Source: Flaviaesturariibacter aridisoli
GTDB taxonomy: Bacteria > Bacteroidota > Bacteroidia > Chitinophagales > Chitinophagaceae
DNA: 45,704 nt
Reading direction: 5' to 3'
Assembly (NCBI RefSeq): GCF_004343705.1
Contig: NZ_SKFH01000030.1
Span: forward strand, 1 to 45,704
Shown piece after piece: positions 769 through 7,645 of the stretch (within the stretch, counting starts at the first letter, position 1; the number at the start of each line of letters is the position of its first letter). A program made the translations under genes and the position numbers. The notes beneath the pieces were generated by a model. That model ran no database searches, was not told where the DNA came from, and saw only the letters and a program-made list of their open reading frames with translations.

Positions 769-1872
769 TTATTGCTTCTCCGCGGAATGCATCTTGATGA
801 AATCCGACACGAGGTAGGCGATCAGCTTCCCGGTGGACTCATCTGTTCTTCCATTCGAAAGACGTACCGCCCCTTCGCAGATGTGGAGGTAGGCGCATTT
901 GGCGTTGCCGGCGCAGAGGTTAATAAACTGGCGCGCATGTAACGGCAGCAGTCCCGATGGCGTAGCCGCACTCGTGAGGGCGCCCTGCACGGCGTCGAGG
1001 TCGACCTCGATGCCGCACCAGGTGTCGTCGGTAAACTCAATGGCGTGCGCAATGGCTTGCTGGAACGTGCGTTTGCCGTGGATAAAAATGTCCTCGTACG
1101 TAATGCAGTCGAAAAACGGGTTGTTGACGATGTCGACCCAGACATTTTGCTGCAGGTAATTTTCGTGTATCCCCACCACGCAATACTTCTGGAGGAATCC
1201 GTCGTCTTCGGCATAACGGAATCCATTGCCGCTGTGGCGTCCTTCGGCGGGCCTGTAATCGGTGTGGGCATCGAGGTTGATGGCGTTGATCTGGGGCAGG
1301 CCGATCTGCAGGTCCTGGTGCAGGCCTTTGGCACTGCCCTTCAATAGCGGGTATGCATTATTGTGACCGCCACCAATCACCACCGGCACCTTTCCGGAAC
1401 TCACGATCGCCTTCACAATTTTTTCCACCTCTTCATCGATGGTATTGACGGCATGGCGAAACGCCTCGATGCGCTCGTCCTCGCTTTGCGCGTTTGCCTC
1501 GATCAGCTTTTGCATATCGCTGAAGTCGAAGTGACCGGCCACGCAGATGTCGTCGCCGGTGAGGAAGTCGTTGCTCTGGATATTGAGGAAGGAGTGCAGG
1601 AACGCCGTCCAGCCGGTAGCTGCGCCGCCGGTGCCTGCATTGGCCTGAACGCCGATGTCTTCGGGAATGCCGAGCACCACGTAGCGTGCATCGATCTTCT
1701 GGAACGCTTCGGGGCCGTGGTCTTCGGTGAGCACGTGCACCTGTTCGCCCAGCTTTGTTTCAAAGCGGCGGATCTTTGTGAGGGCCAGGATATCGTTCTT
1801 GGTATAGAAGCGGAAATGAGGTGTTTGCATTGTTGTAGATGGCTTTGCGGTCAAAGTTTGTTCCTGTATCAT
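769..1872 (-). CDS. hutG: Formimidoylglutamase, arginase/ureohydrolase family
   Basis: A 367-residue protein expected to hydrolyse N-formimidoyl-L-glutamate to glutamate and formamide, the last step of histidine breakdown. Ureohydrolase metal motifs are visible: GGGH at 167-170, DAHTD at 201-205 (Asp201, His203, Asp205) and the later EVDLDAV segment. These residues bind two manganese ions in this family. The ATG at 1872 overlaps the stop of hutI by four bases (ATGA), so the genes are probably translationally coupled; a later Met at residue 15 is an alternative start. The arginase-family type means that the cell uses the direct formamide route. The hut context supports formimidoylglutamase over arginase or agmatinase. 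Confidence 0.88.
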   Translation of the reverse strand: MIQEQTLTAKPSTTMQTPHFRFYTKNDILALTKIRRFETKLGEQVHVLTEDHGPEAFQKIDARYVVLGIPEDIGVQANAGTGGAATGWTAFLHSFLNIQSNDFLTGDDICVAGHFDFSDMQKLIEANAQSEDERIEAFRHAVNTIDEEVEKIVKAIVSSGKVPVVIGGGHNNAYPLLKGSAKGLHQDLQIGLPQINAINLDAHTDYRPAEGRHSGNGFRYAEDDGFLQKYCVVGIHENYLQQNVWVDIVNNPFFDCITYEDIFIHGKRTFQQAIAHAIEFTDDTWCGIEVDLDAVQGALTSAATPSGLLPLHARQFINLCAGNAKCAYLHICEGAVRLSNGRTDESTGKLIAYLVSDFIKMHSAEKQ

Positions 1873-3107
1873 ATGGGTGTTCCGTTCAGCAGCACGGTTT
1901 CGATGAGGTTGCTGCCGAAGGCGTAAGGAAGGTACGCCAAAGACGGTATCGGTTGCGTTAAAATGAGCTGTGCTTTTTTCCCCACCGCGATCGAACCGAC
2001 CTCACGGTGCAGCTCCAACGCAACCGCCGCGTTGACGGTGGCGGCGTTGATCGCTTCTTCGGGCAGCAGCTTCATGCCGATGCAGGCCATTGATACTACG
2101 CCGTTCATATTTCCCGAGGGCGAAGAGCCAGGGTTGAAGTCGGAAGCGAGGGCGATGGCGCAGCCGGCGTCGATGAGACGGCGGGCCGGTTGGAACGGCA
2201 TGCGGAGAAAATAGGCGGCCGTGGGCAGCAGGGTGCCGATGGTGCCGGAAGCAGCGAGTGCTTGCGTGGCTGCATCGTCCATGCTTTCGAGGTGGTCTAC
2301 CGACAGGGCGCCGACGGCAATGCCGGCCTCCACCCCACCCGATACGGCGAGCTGGTTGGCGTGCAGCCGCGGCTTCAGGCCGAGCGCTTTGCCGGCCGAA
2401 CAAATACGGATCGTCTGCTCCGGGGTGAAAAAGCCTTCTTCGCAAAACACGTCGATATAATCGGCGAGCCCTTCGGCGGCAACACGTGGCAGCATTTCCT
2501 CTATGAGAAGGCGGATGTAGCCTTCGCGGTCGTCGCGGTACTCGGCGGGAAAGCTGTGGGCGCCGAGAAAGGTGGCGCGGATATCGATCCCGCTCTTTTC
2601 CCGGAGGCGCCGGATCACGCGCAGCATTTTCAGTTCGCCCTCCACCGTCAGGCCATAGCCGCTTTTGATCTCGAGGGTACCGGTGCCGAGGCGCGTTACC
2701 TCCTGCAGGCGGGTCCAGGATTGTCGGAACAGCTCGTCCTCGGAAGTTTCGTGGAGCACGCGGGCCGAGTTGAGAATGCCGCCGCCGCGGGCCGCGATCT
2801 CGGCATAGCTGAGCCCGCGGATCTTGTCGACGAACTCCGACTCCCGGCTGCCGGCGAACACGAGGTGGGTGTGGCTATCGACCCAGGCGGGCAGCAGGAA
2901 GCGGCCGGTGGCGTCGATATGGGTGCGGAAGTCTGCCGGTTTCTGGCGAAGCGCGCTCATCGGGCCGAACTCGGCGATGCGGCCGCCCTCGCAGACGAGG
3001 TAGGCGTCGTTGACAACCGGCAATTCGGATAAGGCCGCGCTGCGTAGCGGCCCGTCTATAGTGCGGGTATTGACGAGTTGCTTGATGTTGGTGATCAGTA
3101 CATCCAT
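1869..3107 (-). CDS. hutI: Imidazolonepropionase
   Basis: A 412-residue amidohydrolase-fold protein that opens the ring of 4-imidazolone-5-propionate to give N-formimidoylglutamate. The N-terminal metal motif is HTH at residues 79-81, followed by the family signature LVFAGSRESEF and AARGGGI. Length is typical. The protein starts at MDVLITNIKQ, which matches the usual short N-terminal beta segment. It overlaps hutG downstream by four bases. Twelve bases upstream of its start lie two overlapping palindromes (3119-3146) that could be an operator. It is separated from hutU and hutH by the trehalose block. Confidence 0.92.
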   Translation of the reverse strand: MDVLITNIKQLVNTRTIDGPLRSAALSELPVVNDAYLVCEGGRIAEFGPMSALRQKPADFRTHIDATGRFLLPAWVDSHTHLVFAGSRESEFVDKIRGLSYAEIAARGGGILNSARVLHETSEDELFRQSWTRLQEVTRLGTGTLEIKSGYGLTVEGELKMLRVIRRLREKSGIDIRATFLGAHSFPAEYRDDREGYIRLLIEEMLPRVAAEGLADYIDVFCEEGFFTPEQTIRICSAGKALGLKPRLHANQLAVSGGVEAGIAVGALSVDHLESMDDAATQALAASGTIGTLLPTAAYFLRMPFQPARRLIDAGCAIALASDFNPGSSPSGNMNGVVSMACIGMKLLPEEAINAATVNAAVALELHREVGSIAVGKKAQLILTQPIPSLAYLPYAFGSNLIETVLLNGTPI

Positions 3108-3118
3108 GGGGGCTAATG

Positions 3119-3146
3119 TAGCCGATTATCGGCTATGGATCCATAG
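3119..3146. promoter_or_regulatory. Two overlapping palindromes upstream of hutI, candidate operator
   Basis: Bases 3119-3135 read TAGCCGATTATCGGCTA, a perfect 8-1-8 palindrome. Bases 3133-3146 read CTATGGATCCATAG, a perfect 14-bp palindrome sharing three bases with the first. They lie 12-39 bp upstream of the hutI start. Position and symmetry suggest a binding site for a dimeric regulator of hutIG, or a stem in the leader RNA. No regulator gene is nearby. The function is inference. Confidence 0.45.
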
Positions 3147-3184
3147 TAGGAGTCCTTCCTGGCCGTAAAAACCGGGAAGGGGCG

Positions 3185-3405
3185 CTACGGTGCGTAGGAT
3201 GGTACCCGGTGTTTTCCGGGTGACCGGCTACGAGGCGTAGGATGCCGTTCGGCGTTTTCGGGTGGGGAGGCTACGGTGCGTAGGATGCCGTCCGGGAATT
3301 TCCGGGGGGCATCCTACGGTGCGTAGGGTGGTGTAGGGAGATTTCCGGGTGGCATCGTACGGTGCGTAGGGTGGTAGCCGGAGAATGGCGGTTGGTATGC
3401 TACGG
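3185..3405. repeat. Five-copy 43-bp tandem array with a hairpin core
   Basis: Copies start at 3185, 3228, 3271, 3314 and 3357, with a fragment of a sixth at 3400. The spacing is exactly 43 bp each time although the sequences have diverged. The core is CTACGGTGCGTAG, whose CTAC and GTAG arms pair around a five-base loop. Copy 2 changes the loop (CTACGAGGCGTAG) but keeps the arms. Copy 4 extends the stem to CCTAC/GTAGG. Copy 1 has a second hairpin (ACCCGG with CCGGGT). No open gene is supported here. Confidence 0.8.
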
Positions 3406-3470
3406 ATTTTATGGGGTTAAGAGGGTGGTAGTCAGGGGGTTGTGGAATGTGGGGCGTTGCCCCCTGGCGG

Positions 3471-3574
3471 ACCCATCCCCCTAACCCCCTTCCCAAAGGG
3501 AAGGGGGAACCAACCTCACCCCTGGCCCCTCTCCAAAGGAGAGGGGAAAAAACCTCACCCCCTACCCCCTCTCC
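3471..3574 (+). repeat. Left terminal inverted repeat of the DUF559 unit
   Basis: Contains two perfect hairpins: a 10-bp stem at 3485-3494/3498-3507 with loop AAA, and a 9-bp stem at 3526-3534/3538-3546 with loop AAA. A third half-palindrome, CCCCTCTCC, lies at 3566-3574. Further in, a short palindrome (CCCTTT/AAAGGG, 3614-3627) overlaps the DUF559 stop codon. Confidence 0.75.
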
Positions 3575-3617
3575 ACCAGATGCACTGGCTTAACATCACG
3601 TACCGGGGAGTCGCCCT

Positions 3618-4022
3618 TTACAAAGGGGGGTGTCCTTTCAGCCGGTTCAGGATCCGGAAGCAGACCCATTCTGTCTGGTTGATCACTTCGTCGTTGGTGA
3701 AACGGATGACCTCGAACCCGGCTGCCTCGAGATCGGCCGTGCGATCCTTGTCCCGTTGCGGGTTTTCTCCTTCGTCATGCACCTCGCCATCAATTTCCAC
3801 CACCAGTGCGCGTTGCAGGCAAACGAAATCAACAATGTAAATCCCGATCACATGCTGGCGGCGGAACTTGTAGCCGCCCAGGTGGCGGCCGCGGAGCTCC
3901 TGCCAGAGCAGATTTTCAGCTTCTGTCGGGTTGTGCCGGTTTTCGCGGGCAAAGGCGAGGCGATTCCGGTATTTCCGGTAGGAAGAATGATGGTAGGCGT
4001 AGTGGCGTCCGGGTGCTTTCAT
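3618..4022 (-). CDS. DUF559 (Vsr/restriction-endonuclease-like) protein
   Basis: A 134-residue protein starting at MKAPGRHYAY. The family signature is complete: NPTEAENLLWQELR, then KFRRQHVIG, then YIVDFVC, then LVVEIDGEVH, then an FEVIRFTNDEV strand. These form a small PD-(D/E)XK nuclease fold related to very-short-patch-repair endonucleases. The Asp in VDF and the Glu and Asp in VEIDG are the expected catalytic positions. An upstream in-frame Met at 4067 would add 15 residues without family similarity, so it was not used. The gene is enclosed by palindromic inverted repeats and may act on them (inference). The true substrate of DUF559 proteins is unknown to me. Confidence 0.8.
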   Translation of the reverse strand: MKAPGRHYAYHHSSYRKYRNRLAFARENRHNPTEAENLLWQELRGRHLGGYKFRRQHVIGIYIVDFVCLQRALVVEIDGEVHDEGENPQRDKDRTADLEAAGFEVIRFTNDEVINQTEWVCFRILNRLKGHPPL

Positions 4023-4166
4023 AGGGCAAAACAACCGCCTGCCTTGCCCGGAAACAAAGGGAAACACGCCGGTTTTCCGGGGATTTTTCTGGGGCTTTGG
4101 TGTTTAAAACATCAGGGCGGGCCCGTGCCGGACGTGTACCTTGGCCGGCGGATCATTGAATTTCCC

Positions 4167-4268
4167 GGAGAGGGGATAAAGGGGTGAGGGAAACTCCCCT
4201 CTCCTTTGGAGAGGGGTCGGGGGTGTGGTCTGCTCCCCTTCCCTTCGGGAAGGGGCTGGGGGATGGGT
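4167..4268 (-). repeat. Right terminal inverted repeat of the DUF559 unit
   Basis: Reverse-complement partner of 3471-3574. It has a perfect 9-bp hairpin at 4196-4204/4208-4216 (loop TTT) and another at 4235-4243/4247-4255 (loop TTC). The loops are TTT/TTC here and AAA on the other side, as expected for inverted copies. It ends 60 bp before the trehalose synthase start and replaces most of that gene's upstream region. Confidence 0.75.
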
Positions 4269-4327
4269 CGGCCCGGCCCGTCCCGGAACGATTTTTTCTA
4301 CGCTCCCCCCAGCGACTCCATCTATCT

Positions 4328-7300
4328 ATGCCAACACAAACCCCTAATGACCTCCTCTGGTACAAAGACGCGGTCATCTACGAACTCCATATCAAAGCCT
4401 TCCGCGACTCCAACGGCGACGGCATCGGCGACTTCGGAGGCCTCCTCGAAAAGCTCGACTACCTCCAGGAACTCGGCGTTACGGCCATCTGGGTACTCCC
4501 CTTCTACCCCTCACCCCTCCGCGACGACGGCTACGACATCGCCGACTACTATAGCATCAACCCCCGCTATGGCGACCTCGAACAGTTCAAATCCTTCCTC
4601 GACGAAGCCCACCGCCGCGGCCTCAAGGTCATCACCGAACTGGTGGTCAACCACACGTCCGACCAGCACCCCTGGTTCCAGCGCGCCCGCCACGCCCCCA
4701 AAGGCTCGCCCGAACGCGACTACTACGTCTGGTCCGACGACCCGACGCAATACAAAGACGTCCGGATCATCTTCCAGGACTTCGAGGCCTCCAACTGGAC
4801 CTGGGACCCGGTGGCCCAGCAATACTACTGGCACCGCTTCTTTCACCACCAGCCCGATCTCAACTTCGATAACCCGCAGGTGCAGCAGGAGATCTTCAAC
4901 GTCATGGATTACTGGTGCGCCATGGGTGTGGACGGGTTCCGCCTCGACGCGATCCCGTATTTATACGAACGGGAAGGCACCAACGGCGAAAACCTCGCCG
5001 AGACCCACGCCTTCCTCAAACGCCTGCGCGCGCATGTGGATCAAAAATTTCCCGGGACGCTCTTTCTGGCCGAGGCCAATATGTGGCCCGAAGAAGCCGC
5101 CTCCTACTTCGGCGATGGCGACGAGTGCCACATGAACTACCACTTCCCGGTAATGCCCCGCATGTTCATGGCCGTGCAGCAGGAAGACCGCTACCCCATC
5201 ACCGATATCTTTGAGCAAACGCCCGCCATCCCCGAGAATTGCCAGTGGGCGATGTTCCTCCGCAACCACGACGAGCTGACGCTCGAAATGGTCACCGACG
5301 AGGAGCGCGACTTTATGTACAAGGTGTATGCAAAGGATCCCAAAGCGCGCATCAACCTCGGTATCCGCCACCGCCTCGCGCCGTTGATGGACAACAACCG
5401 CCGCAAGATCGAGCTGATGAACTCGCTCCTCTTCTCCCTGCCCGGCACGCCCGTGCTGTATTATGGCGACGAGATCGGCATGGGCGATAACTTCTACCTC
5501 GGCGACCGCGATGGCGTCCGCACACCGATGCAGTGGTCGGCCGACCGCAACGCCGGCTTCTCGGAGGCCAACCCACACCAGCTCTACCTCCCCGTGATCC
5601 TCGATCCGGAGTATTCCTACGAATCCGTGAACGTGGAGATGCAGCAGCGCAACACCTCTTCGCTGTTCTGGTTCATGAAGCGGCTCATCTCGCTGCGCCG
5701 TTCCTTCAAGGCGTTCAGCCGCGGCGACATGCAGTTTCTCAACGTTGAAAATCCCAAGGTGCTGGCCTTCACCCGCACCTTCGAGGAAGAGACGATCCTC
5801 GTGGTGGTCAACCTCTCGAAATACGCGCAGCCGGCCGAGATCGACCTGCGACCGTTCAAAGGCTATCAGCCCGTGGAGCTGTTCAGCCGCAATAAGTTCC
5901 CGGCGGTGAAAGAAGACGTGCCTTATTTCTTCACAATGGCGCCGCACTCGTTCCAGTGGTTCCAGCTGGAGAAGGTGCGTACCCGCGCCGACGAGGAGCG
6001 CACCATTCCAACCCTGGAGATCCAGGGCAACGGCATCCTCGATGCCTTTGAGCGGACGCAGCTCGAGCAGGACATCCTGCCGGCCTACGTGTTCAGCCGC
6101 CCTTGGTTTGCCGGTCGGCACCGCACTGTGTACAGCCTGACCATCACGGATCACTACGTGCTGGAAGAGAATGGCCGGCGTGCCTGGTGGCTCCTGCTGG
6201 AGGTGGCTTATGAAAGCGGTTTGCCCGAATGGTACCAGCTGGCGGTGAGCATCGTGTCGCCGGATACGGGCCGCGAGCTGGCGGCGACCCATCCCGATGC
6301 GGTCATTGCACACGTGCAGGGTGCCGGCGAAGGCTCCATGCTTTGTGATGCCTTCTACCTCAAAGGACTCCAGCGTTCGCTGCTGCGGCGCTTCGTGCAA
6401 AGCGAGCAATTGAAGCTCGATGACGGCACCGTGTTTTTCGACGCGGTGGAAGAACTGTCACGTTACAACTGGGAAGAATCCACGCCCCGACTGTTTGAGC
6501 AGAATAAATTCAATACATCGATCGTATACGACAACCGCCTGTTCCTGAAGTGGTACCGGAAGGTGGAGTTCTTCACCAACCCCGACGTGGAGCTGAACCG
6601 CTACCTGTCGCTGGAGGCCGGCTTCCCGTATACGCCAACGTACTTCGGGTCGGCGGAATGGCAATCGGGCCGCGGACGCATGGTGCTGGCCATCGTGCAG
6701 GAGCTTGTGGACAATCATGGAAACGGCTACGATTACATGCGTGAACGGGTCAACAACTTCATTGAGCGCCTGCTCGCACGGCCCAATGCGTCGGTACTGC
6801 TCGAATACGAACTGCAGCCCTGGTCGAAGCCCGTTGCGATCGACGAGTTGCCCGAAGTGATGCAGGACCTGCTGGGGGGGCGTGGTGCGGAGCTGATGCG
6901 CCTGCTCGGTGAGCGCACTGCCCAAATGCACAAGGCCTTTGCCCGCAACCACGCCCAGAAAGAATTTGCACCGGAAGACTTCTCCCTCCATTACCAGCGC
7001 TCGCTTTTCTCCTCGATGGTGTCGCTGGTGCGGGATGCCTACCACCAAATGAACCGATCGGAAAACCTCCCGGAGCCGGCAGCCGTAAAAATACGGACGC
7101 TGCTCGGGCGTCGCACCGAACTGCTCGGACTGCTGAAGCGGGTGTATGACCACAAGCTCGACGTGGTAAAAGTGCGTACGCACGGTTCGTTCGACCTGTA
7201 CAAGGTGCTGCTCACCGGGAAAGACATTGTCCTGTACGACTTTGGCGGAAACATATTCAAAAGCTTCTCCGAACGGCGCATCAAACGCTCGCCCGTGCGC

Positions 7301-7645
7301 GACCTGGCACAGATGGTGGCCGGCATTTACAACGCCACCTTCGACGGTTTCGCCAACAGCGGGCACATGACCGGCGACGGGGAAGCGTACCTGCCCTATG
7401 CCGAGCGCTGGGCCTACCTGATGAGCGGCTTTTTCCTGCGCGCTTATTTCGATTGCGTAAAGGAGGAAGCCTTCCTGCCCAAAGACGCCGAAGACTGCAC
7501 GATGCTGCTGCACACGTTCCTGGTTGAACGCTCGCTGCGCCACCTGGCACAGGACCTCCAGTCCGGCGGCGACCGGGTGCTGGGACCGCTGTACCTTATC
7601 GACTCGGTATTTGCGCAAACCGCCTCAACGGTCGGTGACGGCTGA
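4328..7645 (+). CDS. treS: Trehalose synthase fused to a degenerate maltokinase-like domain
   Basis: A 1105-residue fusion. Residues 1 to about 560 form a GH13 trehalose synthase that interconverts maltose and trehalose. It begins LLWYKDAVIYELHIKAFRD and carries nucleophile Asp207 in GFRLDA, acid/base Glu249 in LAEANMWP and Asp315 in RNHDE. The rest resembles maltokinase, which makes maltose-1-phosphate for the GlgE route. The kinase core is altered: the usual HGD-x-H-x-GQ motif reads HGSFDLYK at 952-959, and the usual DFEG reads DFGG at 971-974. The catalytic base position is therefore Ser. The start MPTQTPNDLL was chosen because the upstream in-frame stretch only translates the DUF559 terminal repeat. 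The 3' end overlaps the opposing otsAB end by 21 bp. Confidence 0.9.
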   Translation: MPTQTPNDLLWYKDAVIYELHIKAFRDSNGDGIGDFGGLLEKLDYLQELGVTAIWVLPFYPSPLRDDGYDIADYYSINPRYGDLEQFKSFLDEAHRRGLKVITELVVNHTSDQHPWFQRARHAPKGSPERDYYVWSDDPTQYKDVRIIFQDFEASNWTWDPVAQQYYWHRFFHHQPDLNFDNPQVQQEIFNVMDYWCAMGVDGFRLDAIPYLYEREGTNGENLAETHAFLKRLRAHVDQKFPGTLFLAEANMWPEEAASYFGDGDECHMNYHFPVMPRMFMAVQQEDRYPITDIFEQTPAIPENCQWAMFLRNHDELTLEMVTDEERDFMYKVYAKDPKARINLGIRHRLAPLMDNNRRKIELMNSLLFSLPGTPVLYYGDEIGMGDNFYLGDRDGVRTPMQWSADRNAGFSEANPHQLYLPVILDPEYSYESVNVEMQQRNTSSLFWFMKRLISLRRSFKAFSRGDMQFLNVENPKVLAFTRTFEEETILVVVNLSKYAQPAEIDLRPFKGYQPVELFSRNKFPAVKEDVPYFFTMAPHSFQWFQLEKVRTRADEERTIPTLEIQGNGILDAFERTQLEQDILPAYVFSRPWFAGRHRTVYSLTITDHYVLEENGRRAWWLLLEVAYESGLPEWYQLAVSIVSPDTGRELAATHPDAVIAHVQGAGEGSMLCDAFYLKGLQRSLLRRFVQSEQLKLDDGTVFFDAVEELSRYNWEESTPRLFEQNKFNTSIVYDNRLFLKWYRKVEFFTNPDVELNRYLSLEAGFPYTPTYFGSAEWQSGRGRMVLAIVQELVDNHGNGYDYMRERVNNFIERLLARPNASVLLEYELQPWSKPVAIDELPEVMQDLLGGRGAELMRLLGERTAQMHKAFARNHAQKEFAPEDFSLHYQRSLFSSMVSLVRDAYHQMNRSENLPEPAAVKIRTLLGRRTELLGLLKRVYDHKLDVVKVRTHGSFDLYKVLLTGKDIVLYDFGGNIFKSFSERRIKRSPVRDLAQMVAGIYNATFDGFANSGHMTGDGEAYLPYAERWAYLMSGFFLRAYFDCVKEEAFLPKDAEDCTMLLHTFLVERSLRHLAQDLQSGGDRVLGPLYLIDSVFAQTASTVGDG

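What the first reader, a model, noticed from the sequence alone, without database searches (positions are those of the whole stretch)
3471..4268. DUF559 nuclease gene packed between ~100-bp palindromic terminal inverted repeats
Seen: both flanks of the gene carry the same ordered blocks in inverse orientation (outer ACCCATCCCC, two perfect hairpins, CCTCACCCC, a half-palindrome), and CGG stands outside both ends. Known: REP-associated tyrosine transposases are single-gene systems surrounded by palindromes, and DUF559 is a PD-(D/E)XK nuclease fold. Inference: this is a comparable unit in which the nuclease acts on, or is spread with, the palindromes. It has landed in the treS promoter region.
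Basis: partly seen in the sequence, partly recalled or inferred. Interest (0 to 1): 0.75.

Follow-up and report, generated by a model that had tools for sequence, protein, structure and literature searches.

The report
Mobile nuclease gene between inverted palindromes
A small gene for a DNA-cutting enzyme sits between mirror-image palindromic repeats, and relatives of the same unit turn up in other bacteria both between genes and set in frame inside enzymes, which looks like a form of selfish DNA that I could not find described.

Summary
A 134-aa DUF559 nuclease gene (3618-4022, minus) lies between inverted arrays of C-rich palindromic units (3471-3574 / 4167-4268). It is not local: stand-alone DUF559 loci have flanking inverted repeats (score >=15) in 38 of 57 against 0 of 161 shifted windows; RAYT, GIY-YIG and LeuRS loci carry these hairpins in 1 of 29, 0 of 25 and 1 of 27. 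At four own-genome sites tested, some relative lacks the nuclease. Unexpectedly, 96 of 154 DUF559 loci, a sample biased to close matches, lie in long reading frames, among them LeuRS, MetRS, IleRS, MetH and CinA, with translated palindromes at the joints (53 of 92 against 1 of 445 controls). One LeuRS insert has perfect 40-bp inverted ends. Catalytic residues are intact in 94 of 96 in-frame copies. Nearest folds: 3hrl and homing endonuclease I-Bth0305I. Best reading: a mobile, REP-like palindrome element driven by a Vsr-type nuclease and tolerated in frame, like Rickettsia palindromic elements. Mobility is inferred from comparison; cutting of the palindromes is untested.

The parts
3471..3507 (+). 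Left outer palindromic unit, type A: C-rich head (ACCCATCCCC...) plus hairpin 3485-3507
3514..3546 (+). Left unit, type B: head CCTCACCCC 3514-3522 plus hairpin 3526-3546
3553..3574 (+). Left inner half unit (head plus first arm only), matched by an inverted half unit at 4167-4189
   Evidence: read by eye
3618..4022 (-). DUF559 PD-(D/E)XK nuclease, 134 aa from ATG at 4022 (149 aa from GTG at 4067)
4167..4189 (-). Right inner half unit, inverted copy of 3553-3574
   Evidence: read by eye
4196..4228 (-). Right unit, type B inverted: hairpin 4196-4216 plus outer head
4235..4268 (-). Right outer unit, type A inverted: hairpin 4235-4255 plus outer head GGGGATGGGT
3487..3561 (.). Left arm of the long inverted repeat (partner 4181-4255, 76% complementary)
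4181..4255 (.). Right arm of the long inverted repeat
1869..3107 (-). Neighbour: hutI-like amidohydrolase, one side of the divergent gap
4328..7645 (+). Neighbour: treS-like alpha-amylase/maltokinase, other side of the divergent gap

Best explanation
A mobile unit: one Vsr/homing-type PD-(D/E)XK nuclease gene between inverted copies of a short palindromic unit (C-rich head plus pyrimidine-arm hairpin). Shown by comparison: the unit is recurrent, is present or absent at the same site in relatives, and occurs between genes and in frame inside host enzymes; gene-less palindromic units of the same kind also occur. Inferred: the nuclease cuts or nicks at the palindrome (or at a site lacking the unit), and repair copies the unit in, so nuclease-bearing copies are the autonomous form and solo palindromes are by-products or spent copies. 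Because the units can be read through in an open frame, insertions into permissive loops leave the host enzyme working, with no splicing (that it works is inferred from LeuRS being found once per genome).
For: Flanking repeats: stand-alone IR >=15 in 38 of 57 against 0 of 161; in-frame joints IR >=12 in 53 of 92 against 1 of 445. Gene specificity: pyrimidine-arm hairpin on at least one side in 19 of 24 DUF559 genus loci and 18 of 31 others; RAYT 1 of 29, GIY-YIG 0 of 25, LeuRS 1 of 27. Other phyla. Sites without the gene at four of four own-genome sites tested, including HK|DUF2147: palindrome pair with nuclease in G016, without in G010. LeuRS site 2: nuclease in G029 and G023, palindromes only in G011, neither in G013. 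Perfect 40-bp inverted ends in L138. Selection: catalytic D and E intact in 94 of 96 in-frame rows; dN/dS 0.05-0.16 in 12 of 13 pairs with a value among the 20 pairs shown. Palindrome type tracks nuclease clade across three genomes: 1 change on the tree for 9 loci, 2 of 126 labelings as good; Mantel rho -0.25, p 0.0024. Fold: homing endonuclease I-Bth0305I second to 3hrl.
Against: No assay of cutting or movement exists. No excess of target duplications was detected. Nucleases at one host site cluster on the tree (20 changes for 83 tips, shuffles 43-48), so much in-frame occurrence is inherited, not fresh insertion. Inverted repeats reach the threshold in only 13 of 34 scored MetH-linker and 0 of 3 IleRS joints. 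L001 (own genome) keeps the gene without clear palindromes. The Mantel signal is not significant in the Chloroflexota sample alone (p 0.15). The type labels of the nine loci were given by eye after the tree was seen, and the A/B branch has support of only 30. My first, wider test found 3 of 75 loci above the 99% control. Two of five named plasmid loci do not exceed their controls. 37 of 40 hairpin clusters in this genome lie away from DUF559.
Confidence: 0.62

Rival explanations
1. The palindromes are ordinary REP-like repeats moved by a RAYT (HUH tyrosine transposase), and DUF559 is a passenger caught between them.
For: Y1_Tnp hits occur in 14 of 18 genus genomes, 7 in the own genome, and 19 of 29 tested loci have flanking inverted repeats, IR >=13.
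Against: RAYT-flanking repeats are of another kind: 0 of 29 with pyrimidine-arm hairpins on both sides, 1 of 29 on any side, against 19 of 24 on any side for DUF559 in the genus. G004 and G011 show no Y1_Tnp hit yet carry DUF559 and palindromes in LeuRS; these assemblies are only 79% and 62% complete.
Confidence: 0.12
2. DUF559 is a host repair enzyme (Vsr-like, as proposed for Caulobacter VsrA) and the palindromes are terminators or recombination hot spots that happen to flank it.
For: Caulobacter VsrA carries a DUF559 domain and is proposed to be a T:G mismatch nuclease (PMC12907096, passages read); E. coli Vsr is a weaker fold match. Not all copies have palindromes.
Against: Variable number of hits, 0-7, among congeners, empty sites, in-frame presence in 15 host protein families among 18 representatives with palindromes at many joints, and hardly any such flanks on three other gene families.
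Confidence: 0.1
3. A classical free-standing homing gene: the nuclease recognises the uninterrupted host sequence, not the palindrome; the palindromes are only protective ends or translatable linkers.
For: Closest solved relative after 3hrl is homing endonuclease I-Bth0305I; same-site copies cluster on the tree; hosts are conserved genes, as for inteins (recalled).
Against: Palindrome type follows nuclease clade rather than genome in the window's clade; insertion points in the MetH linker vary by several residues; palindromic units also occur without the gene.
Confidence: 0.25
4. The in-frame copies are useful domain fusions kept by the host, unrelated to mobility.
For: Purifying selection on the domain.
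Against: Hosts are unrelated enzymes, in several the insert splits a host Pfam domain, many joints are inverted DNA repeats, and LeuRS of relatives lacks the insert at the same point.
Confidence: 0.05

Closest known systems
REP / RAYT (REPtrons, GTAG REPs; PMC3733652, passages read; PMC2817692 and PMC3116915, listings only)
   Same: Single nuclease-type gene flanked by inverted palindromic units with a head; many solo palindromes elsewhere in the genome.
   Different: Enzyme is PD-(D/E)XK (DUF559), not a HUH Y1 transposase; palindromes have pyrimidine arms and no GTAG or CGTC tag in this window; many relatives are in frame inside coding genes.
Rickettsia palindromic elements (PMC10969869, passages read)
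   Same: Palindromic repeats inserted in frame in unrelated metabolic genes and translated as part of the host protein.
   Different: The passage read describes elements of about 150 bp that encode a conserved peptide; here nuclease-bearing forms (476 bp in L138) exist beside gene-less ones, in other phyla. No sequence comparison with Rickettsia repeats was made.
Vsr-type homing endonucleases such as I-Bth0305I (PDB 3r3p)
   Same: Fold and profile match; plausible cut-and-copy spread.
   Different: No intron or intein was found around it; the domain stays in the host frame; bounded by palindromes.
Inteins (recalled)
   Same: Nuclease in frame inside conserved enzymes at recurrent sites.
   Different: No splicing domain among the Pfam hits of 18 representatives.
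Caulobacter VsrA (PMC12907096, passages read)
   Same: DUF559 domain; causes an SOS response in cells lacking a cytosine methyltransferase.
   Different: Proposed repair role; no palindromic element described in the passages read.

Membership tests
DUF559 (PF04480) | Match above the Pfam gathering score with conserved catalytic D and E | tested here: met
   121 bits against cut-off 20.6; D and E intact in 56 of 56 stand-alone rows, the window's included
REP/RAYT | HUH/Y1 tyrosine transposase encoded between the palindromes | tested here: not met
   Only DUF559 and, below its cut-off, MTES_1575 match the protein
REP/RAYT | Flanking inverted palindromes plus dispersed solo copies | tested here: met
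REP/RAYT | GTAG or CGTC tag at one end of the stem | tested here: not met
   Window units begin ACCCATCCCC and CCTCACCCC (by eye); tag definition from PMC3733652
Rickettsia palindromic elements | In-frame insertion of a palindromic repeat in unrelated genes | tested here: met
   For relatives, not for this intergenic copy:
Rickettsia palindromic elements | Sequence relation to RPE families | not tested
   No comparison with Rickettsia repeats was made
Homing endonuclease gene | Fold of a known homing nuclease | tested here: met
   3r3p profile E 5.8e-7; Foldseek E 7.6e-5
Homing endonuclease gene | Cuts the empty allele and is copied in | not testable with these tools
   Needs biochemistry; empty alleles exist
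Intein | Protein-splicing (Hint) domain | tested here: not met
   No such family among Pfam hits (E <= 0.001) of 18 representatives
TIR transposon with target duplication | Short direct repeats outside the ends | tested here: inconclusive
   3-mers 9 of 67 against shuffled mean 7.9; 4-mers 5 against 2.1, maximum 6; ends placed only by alignment
Vsr repair endonuclease | Vsr fold | tested here: inconclusive
   1vsr is rank 10, E 0.023; T:G activity not testable

The most novel reading that the evidence does not exclude
A class of selfish DNA spread over bacterial phyla (strong here in Bacteroidota and in a sample taken as Chloroflexota; single loci in Deinococcota, Pseudomonadota and, marginally, Cyanobacteriota): a Vsr-type nuclease with its own palindromic ends that inserts between genes and, unspliced and in frame, into essential enzymes ('an intein without splicing'), and that supplies the machinery for RPE-like and REP-like C-rich palindromes. 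Together with RAYTs and the GIY-YIG loci seen in passing, it would suggest that bacterial palindromic repeats are generally paired with a cognate nuclease family.
Probability: 0.4. Interest if true: 0.95.

Novelty: categorically new. Interest (0 to 1): 0.85.

Why it matters
It proposes a mover for C-rich palindromes and for in-frame palindromic insertions, gives a role to a domain still named 'of unknown function', and shows nuclease domains sitting in the only LeuRS found in several genomes, and in MetRS, IleRS and methionine synthase, with no splicing domain. The claim is directly testable with one small protein and synthetic hairpins. 'Categorically new' rests on defining features not met for RAYT (enzyme, tag) and intein (splicing domain), an inconclusive test for TIR transposons, and searches of open-access papers only; it works like REP/RAYT, RPE and homing genes combined, and a reader who weighs that likeness more could call it a new variant.

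Tried and rejected
Rejected or weak. (1) Target duplication from the CGG: 3-mers at chance over 67 loci, ends placed by alignment only. (2) A first flank test with 600-bp windows gave 3 of 75 loci above the 99% control; 72 of these 77 non-duplicate loci later proved to lie in long frames, where units are short, and the narrower test is positive. The narrow test was chosen after seeing the first. (3) RAYT as mover. (4) Rfam: no match at gathering score in 3000-4800. (5) AlphaFold of the CinA fusion: mean pLDDT 46, not used. (6) Remnant nuclease in the gene-less G016 hutI-treS gap (L179): nothing convincing, best tblastn E 0.056. (7) A 103-aa extra stretch in the own LeuRS looked DUF559-like by eye but has no Pfam hit up to E 5. 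(8) The first Mantel run held a duplicate (L199 = L084) and had L199 and L061 in the wrong group; repeated without L199 and with L061 moved (42 loci). Searches (154 loci; 58 stand-alone rows; 152 rows) still hold L199. In one search four of 31 loci were dropped as truncated; one of 30 RAYT, five of 30 GIY-YIG and three of 30 LeuRS loci.

Choices made by eye: palindrome types A to D, and the D/AB label of nine loci, given after the tree had been seen (L003 has a D unit on one side and an A unit on the other; I labelled it D). The five plasmid loci were picked by me from 40 listed rows.

Literature: PMC12907096, PMC10969869 and PMC3733652 read as passages; all others seen as search listings only (titles and abstract starts). 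Inteins are described from recall.

Full report
Anatomy. The window holds a 134-aa DUF559 gene on the minus strand between two inverted arrays of palindromic units. A unit is a C-rich head (ACCCATCCCC or CCTCACCCC) followed by a hairpin whose 5' arm is all C and T (CCCCTTCCC, CCCCTCTCC). Heads face outward on both sides. The inverted pair is the longest of the two pairs listed for the 45.7-kb window and the hairpins exceed shuffles.

The genome. The own genome has six DUF559 hits; five have C/G palindromes on both flanks, L001 does not. The exact hairpin pattern occurs 50 times in the own genome, 16 in G016, 5 in G010, 3 in G003 and 0-2 in each of the other 14 genus genomes; the reversed control gives 0, except 1 in G015. 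Seven of the 50 lie within 600 bp of DUF559 (my count) where 0.1 is expected; counted as clusters, 3 of 40 (P 0.0002); 37 clusters are elsewhere. Gene-less inverted pairs exist (L010, L014, L015). DUF559 hits, a few of them weak matches inside very long frames, number 0-7 in the 18 genomes of the genus.

Empty sites. I tested four of the six own-genome sites. hutI-treS: the two genes are adjacent in G016, G010 and G015 (3 of 11 relatives whose treS region was fetched) and none of the three has DUF559 there; in G016 the gap holds inverted B-type units around a 432-bp gene-less stretch. HK|DUF2147: G016 has palindromes plus DUF559, G010 the palindrome pair without it, the own genome the gene without clear palindromes. 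RluF|TBDR has no DUF559 in G016 and G010. BirA|right is a gap of about 72 bp in G016; in the own genome the BirA stop codon lies in the palindrome.

How general. L061 lies in a record titled Chloroflexi bacterium; I take the phylum drawn around its genome to be Chloroflexota (the tool names none). There 70 of 151 genomes have a hit, and 10 of 25 testable loci have flank inverted repeats >=15 (11 of 27 with two loci of a Prevotella genome), with the same head-plus-hairpin grammar. In that set, repeats of different loci resemble each other, so mismatched-locus pairs also reach 15 in 48 of 702. Of five named plasmid loci that I picked from 40 listed, Deinococcus proteolyticus (score 48.5), Sphingomonas parapaucimobilis (25, between sufB and sufC) and Picosynechococcus (14.5) exceed their own shifted controls; Azospirillum (14.0, control up to 14.0) and Sinorhizobium do not. 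In some of these loci, and some Chloroflexota loci, the heads face inward.

Controls. Stand-alone loci: IR >=15 within 300 bp in 38 of 57 against 0 of 161 shifted windows; at >=13, 44 of 57 against 5 of 161. Other families in the genus and family: RAYT-like Y1_Tnp loci have inverted repeats (19 of 29 with IR >=13), as expected for a positive control, but hairpins of this kind in only 1 of 29; GIY-YIG 0 of 25; LeuRS 1 of 27, with no inverted repeat >=13.

In-frame copies. Of 154 DUF559 loci (153 without one duplicate), 96 lie in long reading frames, meaning more than 60 residues after or 150 before the domain; 80 of 153 have at least 60 residues of frame on both sides. The share depends on the sample: 72 of 77 in the set of best matches, 19 of 46 in the own genome, genus and family, 4 of 29 in the Chloroflexota sample. 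Pfam on 18 representatives shows the domain inside 15 host protein families: MetH (several sites), MetRS, LeuRS, IleRS, CinA, tryptophan dioxygenase, adenine deaminase, acetyl-CoA synthetase, CoA-transferase, a MiaB-like radical SAM enzyme, an M23 peptidase, a RecQ-like helicase, PurL, chorismate synthase, GcpE (some names are my reading of the Pfam hits). The joints often are inverted palindromic units read through as peptides such as PPAPKGG: IR >=12 in 53 of 92 against 1 of 445 windows shifted along the same loci. L138 (G004, LeuRS) is a 476-bp insert with perfect 40-bp inverted ends.

LeuRS as a case. 57 of 58 relatives have a LeuRS editing-domain hit, one strong hit per genome as a rule (G028, a fragmented assembly, has two), plus usually a weak hit that I read as ValRS-like. 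Five genomes with an in-frame nuclease (G029 with two, G023, G004, G011, G017) have it in the only LeuRS found. At site 2 G013 has nothing and G011 an inverted pair of units without nuclease; at site 1 G001 has a nuclease-less pair; at another position G029 and G010 have a solo unit.

Selection and phylogeny. Catalytic D and E are intact in 56 of 56 stand-alone and 94 of 96 in-frame rows; among the 20 closest in-frame pairs shown, 13 have a dN/dS value, 12 of them 0.05-0.16 and one, nearly identical, 0.64 (several dS values exceed 1). On a tree of 152 domains, host site changes 20 times for 83 in-frame tips (shuffles 43-48), so sites are mostly inherited with repeated jumps; stand-alone/in-frame changes 11 times (shuffles 38-52). 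The window nuclease belongs to a clade of nine stand-alone copies in three congeners (SH-aLRT 84); palindrome type, labelled by eye afterwards, changes once on it, genome four times; the D branch has support 91, the A/B branch 30. Unit similarity falls with nuclease distance (rho -0.25, p 0.0024; Bacteroidota alone p 0.024, Chloroflexota sample alone p 0.15).

Enzyme. Profile search finds PDB 3hrl (E 3.9e-32) and 3r3p (5.8e-7); the model (pLDDT 84) matches 3hrl, then homing endonuclease I-Bth0305I, with E. coli Vsr weaker. In Caulobacter the DUF559 protein VsrA is responsible for an SOS response in cells lacking a cytosine methyltransferase (PMC12907096, passages), so a DUF559 protein can damage DNA.

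Mechanism. Shown by comparison: a recurrent unit of nuclease plus inverted palindromes, present or absent at the same sites, in frame or between genes. Inferred: nuclease-driven copying into or through palindromes, with solo palindromes as by-products. No excess of target duplications was detected, which gives no support to a simple cut-and-paste transposon.

Novelty. Searches of open-access papers returned no listing that, from title and abstract start, describes DUF559 with palindromes or as an in-frame mobile insert; 14 papers hold the word DUF559, of which I read passages of one. Most subscription journals are not in the library.

Noticed in passing
L319, L320, L321, L323, L334, L336, L340 (flanks of the GIY-YIG match): 7 of 25 testable GIY-YIG nuclease loci in the genus have flanking inverted repeats scoring >=20, of a different type (such as TGTCATGCTGA and CGAGCGAAGCGAGGA motifs): a possible second nuclease-palindrome pairing.
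   Followed up: partly
G010:C2:497531-499150 and C43; G000:C53; G015:C1:1257979-1258614: Tandem arrays of GIY-YIG genes, several copies with the same score at regular spacing of about 350-430 bp.
   Followed up: no
window 3173-3387: A tandem repeat with a 43-bp period (CTACGGTGCGTAGG...) beside the element; a like repeat lies in the same gap of G010 (L180), and other short repeats fill the gene-less palindrome pairs L010 and L014.
   Followed up: no
L261 (G000 LeuRS) and L264 (G001 LeuRS): A further insert of about 103 aa in LeuRS, no Pfam hit up to E 5 for the G000 copy; looks like a much-diverged nuclease by eye.
   Followed up: partly
L265 (G057 LeuRS): A different 182-aa insert at LeuRS site 1, where other genomes carry DUF559.
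   Followed up: no
window about 4023-4100; L003, L004, L005, L163, L179: Recurring GTGAAAAAC / GTTTTTCAC-like motifs upstream of the stand-alone nuclease genes, with a similar stretch in the gene-less G016 gap (by eye); possible operator or recognition site.
   Followed up: partly
G000:C14:26, C29:82950, C46:89; G016:C23:1: Hairpins of this family at or near contig ends, suggesting that the repeats break assemblies and are undercounted.
   Followed up: no
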